Assembly (NCBI GenBank): GCA_016879935.1
Contig: JAACJQ010000343.1
Location: forward strand, 1 to 64,000
Source: Archangiaceae bacterium
GTDB taxonomy: Bacteria > Myxococcota > Myxococcia > Myxococcales > Myxococcaceae
DNA length: 64,000 bases
Reading direction: 5' to 3'
Every line of letters begins with the position of its first letter. Position 1 is the first letter of the stretch. A model generated the notes under the pieces. The model worked only from the letters and a program-made list of their open reading frames with translations. It was not told the origin of the DNA and ran no database searches. A program made the translations under genes and the position numbers. Shown here one piece after another: positions 30,558-36,758 of the stretch.

Positions 30558-31526
30558 TCAGCCCCACTTCACCGAGTCGCCGAACCGGTCGCTCAGCTTC
30601 TTCTTCGTCGCGCGGCTGGCATCGACGCGCAGCAGGTCGAGTCGCTTGAGTCCAGGAAGCAGTTCGGGATCGGCGAAGCGAACGAGCAGCTCGTCGCTCA
30701 GCTCGTTCTCACTCAGCTCGAGGCGCTGCAGCCCGTCGTGTTCGCCTTCGAACAACAGCTCGAACGCTTCATCGGTCAGCTCGTTGGCGGCGAGCGACAG
30801 GTGCCGCAGCCCCATCGAGAAATCAGACGCGAGGAACGCGGCCACCCCTTCGTCCGTCACACCGGCGCGCGAGAGAAAGAGCGTGTCGACCGACAGCTCA
30901 CAGTCGTCGAACGCCGCGAGACCGTCATCACCGATCTCCGAGCCCGAGAGGCTCAACCGGCGCAGCGCCTTGAAGTCCTGCTTCAGCAACGCGCGCAGGC
31001 CATCACCTGACAGCCCACCGCCAGCACACGTGAGCGCCGACAGCCTCGCGACCCTCGGCTTCGCCAACGCGCCGGCCCACGCGTCGAGCGCACCCGACAC
31101 CCGCAGGTGCTCGATGCGATCGAAACACTCGGCCTGCATCGTCTTCGCGAGCTCGGTGCCACGCGGCAGGGAGACGATCAGGTTCGTGATCGGCTCGAGC
31201 GCCATCATCGAGGGCAGCGCGCCGAGGTTGTCTTCGGGAATCATCAACTCGATGACGAAGCCGCGATCGAAACGGAGGTTCGACGCGCCCGCCTTCGTGA
31301 GGTCCGCCGTCCAGCTCGAGAGGTGCGACCGCTCCAACGCGACCTTCTTCGCCAGCAGCTGCTTGCGCTTCGCCGGGTTCGGGCGGCTCGCGAGCTGAAT
31401 GGACGTCGCGACGAACTCTCCGCGCGGCTCGTTCTGCTCCTGCCACCAGTCGGCGTAGACCTGCCTCGGCTCGGGCGCGTCGGGACGATCGGCGATGACC
31501 TGCAACAGCTGCTCGTTGCGCTTCAT
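30558..31526 (-). CDS. TIGR02996 repeat-companion protein with leucine-rich repeats
   Basis: ATG at 31526 overlaps the reverse transcriptase stop as ATGA. The N-terminal region (LLQVIADRPDAPEPRQVYADWWQEQNEPRGEF, residues 5-36) is a clear TIGR02996 domain. Residues 130-320 form leucine-rich repeats (FKALRRLSLSGSEIGDDGLAAF, GLRHLSLAANELTDEAFELLF, GLQRLELSENELSDELLVRF). Such proteins are common in myxobacteria and planctomycetes and are of unknown function. The position makes this a candidate partner or effector of the retron. The stop directly abuts the convergent DUF6986 stop. Confidence 0.82.
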   Translation of the reverse strand: MKRNEQLLQVIADRPDAPEPRQVYADWWQEQNEPRGEFVATSIQLASRPNPAKRKQLLAKKVALERSHLSSWTADLTKAGASNLRFDRGFVIELMIPEDNLGALPSMMALEPITNLIVSLPRGTELAKTMQAECFDRIEHLRVSGALDAWAGALAKPRVARLSALTCAGGGLSGDGLRALLKQDFKALRRLSLSGSEIGDDGLAAFDDCELSVDTLFLSRAGVTDEGVAAFLASDFSMGLRHLSLAANELTDEAFELLFEGEHDGLQRLELSENELSDELLVRFADPELLPGLKRLDLLRVDASRATKKKLSDRFGDSVKWG

Positions 31527-32926
31527 CCCTGCCCCCGCGTCAGCGCCTTCACCTCGCGCTGCCACTTCGCGCCGAGCTCTGGATGCACCATGCGCACCCA
31601 GCTCGCGTAGCCCTCGAGCCACGACTTGAAGTCTTCACGCCCGCGCGCCTGCGACTCGAGCCCGTGCTTCTTCACGTTGTGCAGAATCGCTTTGAAGCGG
31701 CGCCGGTCTTCTCTCGGAATCGAGACCTTCTGATTCACCACGAGCCCCGTCACCATGCGGCGCCCACCAGACCGCATCACGCGGCGTTTGCCGTCGTTCT
31801 CCGAGAAGCCCTCCTGCTGGCAGATGGAGTTCACCCACCACAGGAAACGGCCGAGCCGCTCGGGCTGCTTCTGAAACGAGAACGCGAGGTCGTCGGCGTA
31901 GCGCGTGTACGTCGCGCCGAAGCGGGCACACAGCGCCGTGAGCCGCGCATCGAGCCGGCGGCAGACGATGTTGGCAATGGCGGGAGACGTCGGCGCTCCC
32001 TGCGGCAGACAGCCAGGCCACGCGACGCGGCCATCAGGCAACTTCGCGCGCCACGTCGTCAGGCCCGCGAGCGTCGAGGCCACCTCGGTGTTGTAGCCGT
32101 ACGCCTCGAAGAGCCCTCGTACGCGGCGGTAGTGCACCGAGGGAAAGAACTCCTCGAGGTCGACCTTGACGACGATGGAGGCCCCGACGTGCAGCTGCGC
32201 GTTGGTGACGACCGAACGATCGATCGCGAACCCGTGCGCCGCGCCGTGCAGCGGAATCTTCGAGAGCACCTGGTCGAGCAGCGCGCGTTGAGCCGTGCGC
32301 AGCTTCGCGCGAGGGGCCGCGATTCGACGCGTGCCACCGCTGCGTTTGGGAACATCGAACTCGACGTAGCCCGAGCCTGACGCTGAGCCCGGCCGCATGA
32401 ACGCGGTGAGCTCTTCTTCGGTGACGCCGACCAGCTTCGCGACGTCGGCGCGCGACGAGAGCTTCGGCAGCGACACCTTCGGAGGCGGCTTCGAGCTGCG
32501 GCCGAACAGGCCAGCCCACCAGCCAGACGGGTTCCAGCCTCCAGGCACCAGCGGCGATTCACGATCGGGCGTCCACCGGGAGTCGGGCAGCGCGACGTCG
32601 GCGAGCTTCAGACGTCGAACGCCCGCGCGTGCAGCAGCAGACACGCTGCGGCTCGGGTCCTTCACCATCTTGCGCAGGAGCCTCGCGGCCGGCGCGCGCG
32701 GAAACAGCCCCGACAGACTTCGCACCGCGGCGAGGCGCTCTTTCGGGTCGACGTTCTTGAGCCGCCGCTCCACGCCGACTTCGACGGCGCGGCCAGCGAC
32801 CGCGCGGGCCACCTCGAACTCGGCGAGGTCTGCGTGCTGCTCCAGCAGCTTGACGATCGCGTCGGCGTTCTCGTCGGGTTTCTGAAGCAGCTCCTTCAGG
32901 TCGAGCAGCAGCTCAGCAAGCGCCAT
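31523..32926 (-). CDS. ret: Retron reverse transcriptase with N-terminal HEAT-like domain
   Basis: The 467-residue protein carries RT motifs: VKVDLEEFFPSV (catalytic Asp256), CLPQGAPTSPAIANI (302-320) and YTRYADDLAFSF (YADD at 343-346). Retron hallmarks are NAQLH (242-246, the NAxxH motif) and MVTGLVVNQ (391-399, the VTG motif). The first 110 residues form HEAT-like helical repeats (RLAAVRSLSGLFPRAPAARLLRKMVKDPSRSVSAAARAGV region). Retron RTs copy a neighbouring ncRNA into msDNA, primed from a branching guanosine. Two candidate msr-msd copies lie directly upstream on the same strand. No Shine-Dalgarno is evident before the ATG. Confidence 0.93.
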   Translation of the reverse strand: MALAELLLDLKELLQKPDENADAIVKLLEQHADLAEFEVARAVAGRAVEVGVERRLKNVDPKERLAAVRSLSGLFPRAPAARLLRKMVKDPSRSVSAAARAGVRRLKLADVALPDSRWTPDRESPLVPGGWNPSGWWAGLFGRSSKPPPKVSLPKLSSRADVAKLVGVTEEELTAFMRPGSASGSGYVEFDVPKRSGGTRRIAAPRAKLRTAQRALLDQVLSKIPLHGAAHGFAIDRSVVTNAQLHVGASIVVKVDLEEFFPSVHYRRVRGLFEAYGYNTEVASTLAGLTTWRAKLPDGRVAWPGCLPQGAPTSPAIANIVCRRLDARLTALCARFGATYTRYADDLAFSFQKQPERLGRFLWWVNSICQQEGFSENDGKRRVMRSGGRRMVTGLVVNQKVSIPREDRRRFKAILHNVKKHGLESQARGREDFKSWLEGYASWVRMVHPELGAKWQREVKALTRGQG

Positions 32927-32947
32927 GGCTCGACTTGAGCAGACGAC

Positions 32948-33104
32948 GCTCCCGGAGTCGCGCTTGAGGTTACCTGCCTGCAGAGGAGAGCATGAGTGAA
33001 GAAGCCGCGAGGCGACTCACGCGCCAATTCATTCTTCATGGTGAATCGTGTTCACCCGCGACGTGACATCGCGGAGATGGCTAGCCGAACACGACTCCGG
33101 GAGC
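32948..33104 (-). ncRNA. Retron msr-msd RNA, copy A (RT-proximal)
   Basis: Read on the minus strand, the element begins with GCTCCCGGAGTCGTG (a1, 33104 to 33090) and ends with CGCGACTCCGGGAGC (a2, 32962 to 32948). They pair over 15 bp with one G-U, plus two more U-G/U-A pairs inside. Downstream of a1 come GGCTAGCC (possible branching G in TAGC), a perfect hairpin CCGCGA-TGTCACG-TCGCGG, then an msd-like hairpin GCGTGAGT/ACTCATGC. The 3' end is 22 nt upstream of the RT start codon, the usual msr-msd-ret order. Confidence 0.82.
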
Positions 33105-33146
33105 CGCGAGACCACAGCAGCCCGTTGGCGGTCGTGCAAGGCAGAC

Positions 33147-33303
33147 GCTCCCGGAATCGCGTCTGTGGTTACCTGCCTGCAGAGGACGCCGGGAGTGAAG
33201 AAGCCGCAAGGCGACTCCCGGGCGAATTCATTCTTCATGATGAGTCGTGTTCACCCGCGACGTGACATCGCGGAGATGGCTAGCCGAACGCGACTCCGGG
33301 AGC
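33147..33303 (-). ncRNA. Retron msr-msd RNA, copy B (distal duplicate)
   Basis: Same length (157 nt) and layout as copy A, 199 bp further upstream. a1 is GCTCCCGGAGTCGCG (33303 to 33289); a2 is CGCGATTCCGGGAGC (33161 to 33147), pairing over 15 bp with one G-U, plus two inner pairs. The msr hairpin CCGCGA/TCGCGG is identical. The msd hairpin has become CGGGAGT/ACTCCCG, so both sides changed together relative to copy A. a1 starts 13 bases after the stop of the HEAT/AKR gene on the same strand, so transcription may enter from there. Confidence 0.78.
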
Positions 33304-33315
33304 CGCGGCACCACA

Positions 33316-36036
33316 TCAGGAGCGCGACGGGCCTTCAAGCGGCGAACGAACCTGCGCGCGAAATCGGCGGTCCATCATTCGAACGTGCTCGCCATGCTTC
33401 CGCAGGGCGGCCTCGCGCTCCGCACTCAGTGGAACCGATTCCAGCACGTTGAGGTTCTCTTCGAGCTCGTCGAACGCGCGCGGGGCCGAAAGCACGGTCG
33501 CGACCGAAGGCCCGTGGAGTGCGAAGCGGTAACACTCCTCCGCCGTCGGGAGCGGAGCGGGCGGCACCACCCCGTCGACCTCACGAAGCAGCTGACCGTA
33601 CGACGTCGTCGTGAACGCGATGACGGGAACGCCCTGCGCTTTCGCAGCCGGGAGCAGCCGTCGCTCCGCGCCGGGATGCGCGGCCGAGTAGCGCGTCATC
33701 ACCACCGGCCAACGTCCACGCTCGAGCGCGTCGGCGCCGACGTCACGCAGGTGGGTCGAGAAGCCGAAGGTGTGAATGAGCCCTTCGTGGCGCAACTGCT
33801 CGAGCGTCTCGAGGTTCTCGTCAGACAACCGTGATGGCGAGCGCACCCAGAAGAGCAGGAAGACGTCGAGCGCATCTCTCCGGAGCAACCGCAGCTGGCG
33901 CGTGACGTCCCGGCGTAGAGCCGCGCTCCCCGACTCGTAGCTGCCTGCGATGACCGAGAGCGGTGCCGCGGGCCGGTGCGAGAGGAAGCGCGTGAGCTCG
34001 CGTGAATCGGGCTCCCAGAAGAATGACGTGACACCACGCTCGACGGCGGCGGCGTAGCCAGACGGATCCAGTCCGTTCGCGCCGGAGATCGTGAGTGACG
34101 AGACCTGTACGCCACCGAGCAGCCGAAGGTCTTTGCCGGGAGGAAGCGGTGCATGACGAGCAACCACCGGAGCACTCACCCGTCTCGTCGGCCTCAGCGC
34201 ACGCACCTCGGGGAAGGAGGCCAGCTGCTCGTCGGAGAAGAGGATGGTGAGCGCGAGCAGGTGTTCTCGAACGAGCGCGTCTTCATCGATTCTGCGCAAC
34301 GCTTCATCGAGCACCTGCAGCGCGCCCGCGTCTGCGCCCTTGAGCAAGAACGAATACGCCGTTCGCCGGAGCAGTGGATCTCGCTCTGTCGAGAGGAACG
34401 CCTTCAACGACGCGTGCAGGTTCGAGAGATGCTCGATGGCGGCGACGAACGCCGAGCGCACGGCCTCCGATTCGTCACGCGAGAGCCCGAGCAGCGCCGG
34501 CAGCAGCTCGACGTCCTCAGGAGCGACGAGCGAGCAGGCCGTCACGCGAAGGTGCGCATCGGGTTGGTCGAGAAGTGCGTGGAACGCGGCACGTCGCTCG
34601 CCTGGTTTCAGCGACGCGCGGTGTTTGAGCAGCAACGCCGCAGCCGCCCGTCGCGTCGACGGATCGGGATCTGTCTTCACGACGGCCAGCGCGTGATGTG
34701 GCGTCAGCGCTGCCCGGCGATGCCATGGGTCCTCTGCGGTCCCAGCACGCTCGGCAACCGGCAGCCCCTCGATCGCGAGCGCTCCGGGGGCACCTTCGAG
34801 CGAAGCGCTCTCTCGCAGCACGTCGATTCTCTCGAGCGCACGAGCGGCGAGCACGCGCGCCACCGCCGTCGAAGGGCCGTTCAGAATCGTCTCCGCGATG
34901 GCCTTCAGGTCGGGTCGGCGAACCTGTTCCCACCAGCGAACGATCACCTCGAAGACGTCGGCATGCCGCATCGCCGCCACGACCAGCGCTTCGTTCGACG
35001 GGTCCGACACGAGCGACACCGCAGCCGCGCCTCGAAGCGCCGGTGACTGGTGCGCCAGCAAGCCACGGAGCAGCTCGAGATCGTTCGACTCGCCTTGCTT
35101 CGCCAGCACCGCGCACGCGTACGCGGCCTGACCTGCTCCAATCGCTTTCGCCAGCACGCGCCGTGAGAGCTCAGCGTGATCGATCGGCATCGCCTCGAGA
35201 CAAGCGACCGCGGTGCGGGCCGCGTGAGGAACCCGAGGTTCATCCAGCCACGCGAGCACCAGCTCGGCGACGACGAGGTCCGCGTTTCGGGAGAGCCGCT
35301 TTCGAACCGCCCAGCGCAGCGAGTCGTGCGGCTCTCCCAGCAGCGCGACCAGCGTCGTGCCGTCGACCTCGAGCGACGACCATTGCGCCGCCGTGACCGC
35401 AGGGTCGGCATCGAGGCCCGGCAACGTCGGCGTCGGAGCCGCTTCGTCGCCCTCGTCCGACAGCAGCCACGCAGCCGCGCCGCGCACGAGCGCCGACGGA
35501 GACGACCGCAACGCCTCGAGTCGGGAGACGAGCCGACGATCGTTCCCCAATCGCCGCCACAACGACTGCGTCGCCGAGAGCCGCACCCGCCAGAACGGAT
35601 CATCGAAGGCGGTGAGAATGACGTCGACGCTCTCGTCACTCGCCACCTGCGCCAGCGCCCGAATCACCGCGCGGCGAACCCACCAGGTGTCGTCGTCACG
35701 CAGCGCCTGACGCGCCACCGCCACCAACTCCACGGCGCGACGACGGCCCAGCGCATTCCATGCCGCTTCGCGCACCGACGGCCGTTCGTCACCAACGGCC
35801 TGCAGCAACCACGCAACGACGCGAGCATCGTCGACCTCCGCCAACCGTGGCGGCACGAGCGCACGAACGCCTGCGTCTTCGTCGAAGAGCAGCACCTCAC
35901 GCAACGCGAAGAGATCGGCCGACGACGACGGCACGAGGCGCGTCACCGCCCGTTTACGAACCGCGACGGCGTCGTCGAACAACTCGAAGCGCACGAGTTC
36001 GTCGGGTCGCAGCGTCATCGCCGTGAGATGTGCCAC
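33316..36036 (-). CDS. HEAT-repeat protein fused to a degenerate aldo-keto reductase domain
   Basis: A 906-residue protein (ATG at 36036, or 36018). Residues 1 to about 620 are HEAT/PBS-type repeats (for example DERPSVREAAWNALGRRRAVELV, DPSTRRAAAALLLKHRASL). Residues 630-906 look like an aldo-keto reductase barrel: LRLLGGVQVSSLTISGANG, RRDALDVFLLFWVRSP, LRHEGLIHTFGFSTH and a late EELEENL helix. The catalytic tetrad is not recognisable: the usual DxxxxYG site reads EPDSRELTRF, the Lys strand reads SVIAGSYES, and the catalytic His is replaced in FLLFW. It probably binds a ligand or cofactor without reductase activity. It ends 13 bases before retron RNA copy B. Confidence 0.78.
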   Translation of the reverse strand: MAHLTAMTLRPDELVRFELFDDAVAVRKRAVTRLVPSSSADLFALREVLLFDEDAGVRALVPPRLAEVDDARVVAWLLQAVGDERPSVREAAWNALGRRRAVELVAVARQALRDDDTWWVRRAVIRALAQVASDESVDVILTAFDDPFWRVRLSATQSLWRRLGNDRRLVSRLEALRSSPSALVRGAAAWLLSDEGDEAAPTPTLPGLDADPAVTAAQWSSLEVDGTTLVALLGEPHDSLRWAVRKRLSRNADLVVAELVLAWLDEPRVPHAARTAVACLEAMPIDHAELSRRVLAKAIGAGQAAYACAVLAKQGESNDLELLRGLLAHQSPALRGAAAVSLVSDPSNEALVVAAMRHADVFEVIVRWWEQVRRPDLKAIAETILNGPSTAVARVLAARALERIDVLRESASLEGAPGALAIEGLPVAERAGTAEDPWHRRAALTPHHALAVVKTDPDPSTRRAAAALLLKHRASLKPGERRAAFHALLDQPDAHLRVTACSLVAPEDVELLPALLGLSRDESEAVRSAFVAAIEHLSNLHASLKAFLSTERDPLLRRTAYSFLLKGADAGALQVLDEALRRIDEDALVREHLLALTILFSDEQLASFPEVRALRPTRRVSAPVVARHAPLPPGKDLRLLGGVQVSSLTISGANGLDPSGYAAAVERGVTSFFWEPDSRELTRFLSHRPAAPLSVIAGSYESGSAALRRDVTRQLRLLRRDALDVFLLFWVRSPSRLSDENLETLEQLRHEGLIHTFGFSTHLRDVGADALERGRWPVVMTRYSAAHPGAERRLLPAAKAQGVPVIAFTTTSYGQLLREVDGVVPPAPLPTAEECYRFALHGPSVATVLSAPRAFDELEENLNVLESVPLSAEREAALRKHGEHVRMMDRRFRAQVRSPLEGPSRS

Positions 36037-36092
36037 GCGCCTCGCGCGAAGAGAATCAGCGAATCACGAGCGCTGCGTCTACAGTGCGCGCC

Positions 36093-36758
36093 ATGCCCGA
36101 CATGATGGCCATCGTGAGCAAGGCGGTCTTCGAGAAGGAGCACCCTGGCGCGAAACCCGGCTCGACCCTGCCCATCGAGGTCTACCGCTCGACGCACAAG
36201 GCGTTCGAGAAGCTGAAGACGGGTGGCCGGCTCTTCCTCGTCACCGCGCGGCCCGACGATGTGCTCTGGCTCGTGGCCGTGCTCGACGGGCTCACCTTCG
36301 ACGGCAAGCAGTGGAACTCGAAGCCCAACCGCACGCCCATCACCGACATCACGCCGCTCAAGGGCAGCCTCACGTTCGACTCGGGCAAGGGCATCACCGC
36401 GGCGCCCGGTCAGCTCGGCATGTCGCTGCAGACTCCGCGCGTGTTGACGCCGGCCGACGCTCAACTGCTCGGTGGAAGTGGCGCTGCCTCGGAGGGCGCA
36501 CCGGCCAGCGCGACGCGAAACCTCACCGCGCACGAGCCCGTCACCGCCCTGCCCTGTCTGTGCAGCAAGTGCATCGCGAAGGCGCCCGAACGCGCGACCG
36601 CGAAAGACATGAGCTTCTTCCGCATGTCGGCCGAAGCGCACGGCCGCACGCTGCACTTCTGGGTTCCCGACGAGCTGGCGGAGACGAAGCGCGCCGTGCA
36701 GCAGTCCGTCGCTGGAGCGATGCGCGTGAAGCTGAAGAAGGCGCGCGTCAGCCCTTGA
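36093..36758 (+). CDS. Hypothetical protein with CLCSKC cysteine cluster
   Basis: A 221-residue cytoplasmic-type protein starting MPDMMAIVSKAVFEKEHPG. The first half (GGRLFLVTARPDDVLWLVAVLDGLTFDG) looks like a small alpha/beta domain. Near residue 155, LPCLCSKC could bind zinc through its three Cys, followed by FFRMSAEAHGRTLHFWVPDEL. I do not recognise the family. The start was chosen from MPDM; an upstream ATG at 36030 would add 21 residues inside the divergent region. It overlaps the convergent Skp-like gene by 11 bases. Confidence 0.7.
   Translation: MPDMMAIVSKAVFEKEHPGAKPGSTLPIEVYRSTHKAFEKLKTGGRLFLVTARPDDVLWLVAVLDGLTFDGKQWNSKPNRTPITDITPLKGSLTFDSGKGITAAPGQLGMSLQTPRVLTPADAQLLGGSGAASEGAPASATRNLTAHEPVTALPCLCSKCIAKAPERATAKDMSFFRMSAEAHGRTLHFWVPDELAETKRAVQQSVAGAMRVKLKKARVSP

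What the first reader, a model, noticed from the sequence alone, without database searches (positions are those of the whole stretch)
32945..33321. Differences between the two retron RNA copies preserve the pairing
Where copies A and B differ inside predicted stems, pairing is kept. In the a1/a2 stem each copy carries one G-U at a different position. In the msd-like hairpin, copy A has GTGAGT/ACTCAT and copy B GGGAGT/ACTCCC, including a two-sided T-A to G-C change. The msr hairpin CCGCGA/TCGCGG is unchanged. Loops differ freely. This looks like selection on RNA structure in both copies, not one decaying duplicate.
Basis: seen in the sequence. Interest (0 to 1): 0.7.

Follow-up and report, generated by a model that had tools for sequence, protein, structure and literature searches.

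The report
Twin retron RNAs keep their pairing
A soil bacterium carries two side-by-side copies of a retron RNA (the template a reverse transcriptase copies into DNA) whose differences keep the RNA stems paired, and similar small arrays of differing but still-paired retron RNAs turn up in several other bacterial groups.

Summary
Two retron ncRNA units (B 33147-33303, A 32948-33104, minus strand) lie upstream of a retron RT (31523-32926). A 30-sequence alignment shows significant covariation, but only in the msd stem; a1/a2 varies too little. Caveats: substitutions are not rarer in stems, and copy A's msd stem is weakened. All 28 orthologues carry one copy. Two distant relatives carry tandem copies too: L045 two, L044 three. 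Five PADLOC-confirmed type XIII retron loci plus L066 carry arrays of 2-3. In all eight of these, each a1 pairs best with its own a2; msd stems also differ but stay paired, clearest in L112, L113, L114 and L066. The window pair looks like a young stage of the same process. I call it a XIII-like retron with duplicated ncRNA: new variant of a known kind. msDNA production and any benefit of several msDNAs are inferred.

The parts
31523..32926 (-). Retron-type reverse transcriptase, 467 aa, YADD; N-terminal ~150 aa extension
   Evidence: Pfam RVT_1 2.6e-19; PADLOC best RT_XIII 6.1e-116 over residues 150-464; profile finds retron Ec67/Ec86/Ec78 RTs in the PDB; NAxxH and VTG motifs seen in the sequence (motif meaning recalled)
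32948..33104 (-). ncRNA copy A (RT-proximal), a1 to a2
   Evidence: repeat; cmsearch R1 107.4 bits (A is in the training set); alignment A2
33147..33303 (-). ncRNA copy B (distal), a1 to a2
   Evidence: repeat; cmsearch R1 115.1 bits (B is in the training set)
33088..33104 (-). a1 arm of A
   Evidence: pairs with 32948-32964; duplex -34.9 kcal/mol for the 20 x 22 nt ends
32948..32964 (-). a2 arm of A
   Evidence: also pairs with the a1 of B (-36.8)
33287..33303 (-). a1 arm of B
   Evidence: duplex with own a2 -34.9, with A's a2 -36.8
33147..33163 (-). a2 arm of B
33080..33083 (-). TAGC, presumed branch-point motif of A (orthologues CAGC)
   Evidence: sequence; motif described in PMC6868368 (passage)
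33279..33282 (-). TAGC, presumed branch-point motif of B
   Evidence: as for A
33056..33074 (-). msr triloop hairpin of A (CCGCGATGTCACGTCGCGG)
   Evidence: invariant in 30 of 30 sequences
33255..33273 (-). msr triloop hairpin of B
   Evidence: as for A
33015..33025 (-). msd stem 5' arm, A
   Evidence: A2 columns 82-92
32988..32997 (-). msd stem 3' arm, A
   Evidence: A2 columns 112-121
33214..33224 (-). msd stem 5' arm, B
   Evidence: A2 columns 82-92
33187..33196 (-). msd stem 3' arm, B
   Evidence: A2 columns 112-121
32972..32977 (-). GCAGGT motif before a2, A
   Evidence: GCARGT found in all 7 array copies of the window, L045 and L044
33171..33176 (-). GCAGGT motif before a2, B
33111..33116 (-). 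TGTGGT 7-12 nt before the a1 of A; similar element in orthologues, possible promoter element
   Evidence: function inferred
33310..33315 (-). TGTGGT before the a1 of B
   Evidence: function inferred
30558..31526 (-). LRR/TIGR02996 protein, ATGA overlap with the RT stop; conserved downstream partner
   Evidence: NCBIfam TIGR02996 7.1e-11; found in 23 of 28 orthologue loci (flanks 1500 nt)
33316..36036 (-). HEAT-repeat protein with a C-terminal aldo/keto-reductase-like domain; conserved upstream partner
   Evidence: Pfam HEAT_2, Aldo_ket_red; found in 23 of 28 orthologue loci plus L042 and L044

Best explanation
The locus is a retron of a type XIII-like clade in which the ncRNA gene was tandemly duplicated upstream of one RT. 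The RT probably recognises the parts that never vary (msr triloop hairpin, NAGC branch site, GCARGT before a2), so both copies can prime and template an msDNA. Stems (a1/a2, msd) are free to change sequence provided they stay paired, so duplicated units drift into distinct but functional templates; one RT would then make more than one msDNA. The window pair is an early stage: the msd stem has begun to diverge with compensation, while a1/a2 are still interchangeable between copies. Older arrays (L045, L044, type XIII loci) have a1/a2 arms specific to their own unit and different msd stems. Shown: anatomy, pairing-preserving divergence, recurrence of arrays. Inferred: transcription, msDNA from each copy, any defence function.
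For: 7 of 7 changed pairs kept, 3 two-sided, 0 of 200,000 in each direction by chance. Covariation in the msd stem. GU 29 versus AC 4. msr triloop hairpin without a change among 28 orthologues while the msd stem changes as fast as linkers (1.12 versus 0.86-2.50 per column). Relatives: L045 two copies, L044 three. Type XIII arrays in L064, L066, L105, L112, L113, L114; own a1/a2 stronger than any cross pairing for every a1 in all eight non-window arrays; leave-one-locus-out structure: changed pairs kept 9/9, 15/16, 11/14, 8/10, 10/19, 8/15, 7/13, 5/16.
Against: Copy A's msd stem is not in its minimum-energy fold; with the fold of A alone as reference, 6 of 11 changed pairs are kept and none is two-sided. 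No a1/a2 covariation significance. All 28 orthologues manage with one copy. L105 (5/16) and two L114 comparisons (8/15, 7/13) are weak on the leave-one-out structure, L064 middling (10/19). Single-fold tests for L044 and L045 keep only 3-16 of 8-31 changed pairs. No expression or msDNA data.
Confidence: 0.7

Rival explanations
1. A young, neutral tandem duplication in which only one copy (probably B, or the RT-proximal A) still works; paired differences reflect little time and some luck.
For: One copy suffices in 28 of 28 orthologues. Copy A carries two G-U pairs and loses the msd stem in its best fold. B.a1 pairs slightly better with A.a2 than A.a1 does.
Against: No pair was lost in either copy where about 5.8 losses are expected. 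Both lineages took pair-keeping changes. All motifs are intact in both.
Confidence: 0.17
2. Two-sided changes come from mutation, not selection: template switching inside a quasi-palindrome copies one arm of the msd hairpin onto the other.
For: The msd stem is a short DNA inverted repeat, holds all 3 two-sided A/B changes and 8 of the 10 two-sided pairs of the family. In type XIII arrays whole msd stems are replaced.
Against: Such correction has no reason to leave GU (29) over AC (4), though in type XIII arrays the excess is smaller, 34 to 16. a1/a2 arms, over 100 nt apart, are replaced as pairs too in the other arrays. It does not explain why no pair is lost.
Confidence: 0.12
3. The two units form one compound ncRNA: the a1 of B pairs with the a2 of A, enclosing both msr-msd units.
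For: B.a1 x A.a2 is the strongest of the four pairings, -36.8 kcal/mol; a perfect 15-bp inverted repeat joins them.
Against: In all eight other arrays cross pairing is weaker than own pairing for every a1. Local folding should win in a nascent transcript (inference).
Confidence: 0.06

Closest known systems
Retron type XIII (PADLOC RT_XIII / SWIM_XIII / HEAT-ARM_XIII)
   Same: RT is closest to RT_XIII; msr triloop hairpin of the same kind; six type XIII loci examined here also carry tandem ncRNA arrays
   Different: Window RT matches only the RT domain part of the model; no SWIM gene in the window; partners are a HEAT-aldo/keto-reductase-like protein and an LRR protein with no PADLOC match at E<=5; ncRNA 157 nt instead of about 219-248
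Myxococcal retrons Mx162 / Sa163
   Same: Myxobacterial, N-terminally extended RT, CAGC branch motif in orthologues (PMC6868368, passages)
   Different: Mx162 transcript 241 nt with 162-nt msd (same passages) versus a 155-157 nt unit here; identity of this clade with Mx162 not tested
Retron-Nex1 (Ne160)
   Same: Repeated msr-msd sequences are reported (PMC6868368, section 9 read)
   Different: There without an RT within a kilobase; here directly upstream of the RT

Membership tests
Retron (general) | Retron-clade RT with RVT_1 domain and YADD | tested here: met
   NAxxH and VTG seen (meaning recalled)
Retron (general) | ncRNA upstream of the RT with a1/a2 inverted repeat, NAGC branch site, msr hairpin and msd hairpin | tested here: met
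   present in both copies (msd stem of A only suboptimal)
Retron (general) | msDNA with 2'-5' branch is made | not testable with these tools
   needs an experiment
Retron (general) | Associated effector | tested here: inconclusive
   conserved neighbours HEAT-AKR-like and LRR, no defence-model match
Retron type XIII | RT matches RT_XIII over its length | tested here: inconclusive
   best model, but only residues 150-464 to profile 107-425; true type XIII loci match from residue 1-4 at E 1e-169 to 1e-190
Retron type XIII | SWIM_XIII partner gene next to the RT | tested here: not met
   tblastn of three SWIM proteins against the window: best E 1.1
Retron type XIII | HEAT-ARM_XIII partner | tested here: not met
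   window HEAT-AKR protein: 0 PADLOC families at E<=5
Rfam RNA family | match at gathering score | tested here: not met
   0 matches in the 64 kb window

The most novel reading that the evidence does not exclude
Type XIII and XIII-like retrons include multi-template systems: one RT serves 2-3 tandem ncRNAs with conserved RT-binding parts, a1/a2 arms specific to each unit and diversified msd stems, so that a cell displays several different msDNA hairpins, possibly as parallel sensors or baits for different phage proteins.
Probability: 0.3. Interest if true: 0.85.

Novelty: new variant of a known kind. Interest (0 to 1): 0.62.

Why it matters
Retrons are usually described as one RT with one ncRNA. 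Recurrent tandem arrays would mean one RT can make several msDNAs. The arrays also show by natural variation which ncRNA parts the RT probably needs (fixed) and which only need to pair (free), useful for retron engineering and for asking what msDNA senses.

Tried and rejected
Rfam: no match. Viral collection: 80 loci kept, none aligning to the RT's first 120 residues, best hit 37% in the RT domain. L059 and L223 repeats lie in open reading frames, L060 is a short-period repeat; L155 left unresolved. A weak CM hit on the window's plus strand at 32948-33104 (18.4 bits) is read as the palindromic shadow of copy A. The ncRNA tree groups L044 c3 with L045 proximal (93) on a very long branch; not relied on. 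No ncRNA found beside L041, L046, L048-L051; the L031/L038 contig ends before the upstream region. Structure prediction was not used. Mestre et al. 2020 is not held, so whether arrays are already described there is unknown; the paper searches gave listings and abstract starts, and showed no report of tandem retron ncRNAs; of PMC12548924 and PMC8867640 I saw only passages.

Full report
What is there. On the minus strand, upstream of a 467-aa retron-type RT (31523-32926), lie two ncRNA units, B (33147-33303) and A (32948-33104), repeating every 199 nt at 89% identity. The RT's best PADLOC model is RT_XIII (6.1e-116, residues 150-464), and a profile of ten relatives finds retron RTs Ec67, Ec86 and Ec78 among solved structures. 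The window's own genome has the ncRNA only here.

Orthologues. A protein search of 193 genomes gave 28 further loci with the RT at 62-68% identity over its length and upstream DNA, one more cut by a contig end (L031, 71% over the part present), and a 47% relative in the same genus. Each of the 28 has a single ncRNA, 153-156 nt, upstream of the RT. Alignment A2 holds A, B and the 28. A and B share a 2-nt deletion and a 6-nt insertion absent from all 28, so the duplication is specific to the window's lineage.

Testing the finding. Using a structure from the 28 orthologues only (53 pairs), A and B differ at 16 of 157 positions, 10 in paired columns (103) and 6 in unpaired (54). Seven pairs change; all seven are canonical in both copies: three two-sided (82-121, 85-119, 88-116) and four one-sided. 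With the same substitutions placed at random, about 5.8 pairs are lost on average; no run of 200,000 in either direction reached both the observed zero losses and three two-sided changes. On the family, 10 of 53 pairs show two-sided changes against 3.5 in shuffles (0 of 500), 8 of them in the 12-pair msd stem, 2 of 14 in a1/a2 and none in the msr hairpin, which never varies. An R-scape-like test (Fitch null, 150 simulations) finds 85-119 (E 1.4e-4 within structure, 0.033 over all pairs) and 82-121 (0.025) significant and 88-116 just short (0.07); none in a1/a2. GU cells outnumber AC cells 29 to 4 in Watson-Crick-majority pairs, pointing to RNA on the retron strand.

Against. Stems are not spared substitutions. 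Copy A's msd stem is absent from its minimum-energy fold and costs 2.4 kcal/mol to enforce; copy B's forms. With A's own fold as the reference, 6 of 11 changed pairs are kept and none is two-sided. So both copies look constrained, B more convincingly than A.

Rates. Among 28 orthologues the msd stem changes at 1.12 parsimony steps per column, like the linkers (0.86-2.50), while the msr triloop hairpin and the inner paired region have none. Stem sequence is free, pairing is not, and the msr is fixed, presumably for RT binding.

Not alone. A model from A2 (R1) found two tandem units in L045 (Deltaproteobacteria MAG, RT 55%) and one in L042 and L032; L044 (Planctomycetota MAG, RT 52%) has three, the first at 27 bits, the second and third weak with R1 (17 bits) and strong only with a model trained on them. 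All seven units of window, L045 and L044 carry NAGC, a G-NNA-C triloop and GCARGT. In L045 and L044 each a1 pairs best with its own a2 (own -32.2, -27.8; -11.7, -19.0, -24.7; cross -5.7 to -18.2), whereas in the window all four combinations are alike (-33.0 to -36.8). L044 c1 is the weakest unit (fold z -0.6). Counting distinct loci of this clade with a recognised ncRNA, 3 of 33 are arrays (28 orthologues, window, L032, L042, L044, L045; L040, L043 and L047 repeat genomes already counted and were left out).

Type XIII arrays. Self-comparison of the DNA upstream of 160 RT loci (80 genome, 80 viral; 154 with at least 400 nt upstream) showed further tandem units in L064, L105, L112, L113 and L114; an HMM added L066, whose two units are about 1.45 kb apart. 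RTs of the first five match RT_XIII along their length (E 1e-169 to 1e-190), with SWIM_XIII upstream in L105 and L064 and HEAT-ARM_XIII downstream in L064; L066 was not scanned against PADLOC but carries a SWIM relative. In these six, msr and flanks are alike while a1/a2 arms and msd stems differ between units and stay self-complementary. Own a1/a2 beats cross pairing for every a1. With the structure taken from the other loci, changed pairs kept are L112 9 of 9, L114 c1-c2 15 of 16, L113 11 of 14, L066 8 of 10, L064 10 of 19, L114 c1-c3 8 of 15, c2-c3 7 of 13, L105 5 of 16; slid controls kept 0-5 of 10-25. For L105 the alignment is out of register in the stem (my reading); the units' own folds show long stems in both. 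A model from these units (R3) finds E<1e-9 in 36 of 71 loci searched, 6 of 36 with two or more, all six being training loci, and single copies in 16 of 195 Myxococcota genomes. The loci are best hits of one capped scan, not a random sample.

Neighbours. Upstream is a HEAT-repeat protein with an aldo/keto-reductase-like end, downstream an LRR protein overlapping the RT stop by ATGA; each is found at 23 of 28 orthologue loci within the 1.5-kb flanks, the first also in L042 and L044, the second also in L032, L042, L045, L046 and L049. Neither matches PADLOC, and no SWIM gene is in the window. I therefore call this XIII-like, not type XIII.

Mechanism. Most likely the RT binds each unit through its fixed parts and copies each msd, giving two similar msDNAs; arrays elsewhere would give more distinct sets. 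Transcription, msDNA synthesis, the partner genes' role and phage defence are inferred. What is in print: a review reports repeated msr-msd in Ne160 (PMC6868368, passages and section 9 read); the ten searches listed under Tried and rejected showed no report of tandem arrays upstream of an RT, but the main classification paper is not held.

Noticed in passing
L150 3742-3896 (-), G019: A stand-alone ncRNA of this family (143.7 bits) away from any found RT, about 2 kb from a tyrosine-recombinase-like ORF; G019 also has a normal copy beside its RT.
   Followed up: partly
window 33316-36036 (-): The aldo/keto-reductase-like domain appears to lack the usual catalytic His and Lys (DVFLLFW, VIAGS/T) in window, L040, L042 and L044 (expected motif recalled): perhaps a pseudo-enzyme partner of the retron.
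   Followed up: partly
window 36030-36758 (+): Gene whose relative in L045 is fused to the LRR protein beside the RT, and which has a partial match in L032: possible third partner.
   Followed up: partly
L066 1299-2116: Two ORFs resembling a MqsRA-type toxin-antitoxin pair (by eye, not searched) lie between the two ncRNA units.
   Followed up: no
L062 627-773: Sumerlaeota locus with a plausible single ncRNA, perfect 12-bp a1/a2, weak score.
   Followed up: no
G000:C339 757-1677 (L033): Second retron-like RT in the window's own genome, 47% identical over the RT domain; R1 and R2 found no ncRNA beside it.
   Followed up: partly
L155 about 2270-2540: Viral contig with a 91-nt tandem repeat at 74% identity upstream of an RT, with hairpins; possibly another ncRNA array.
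   Followed up: no
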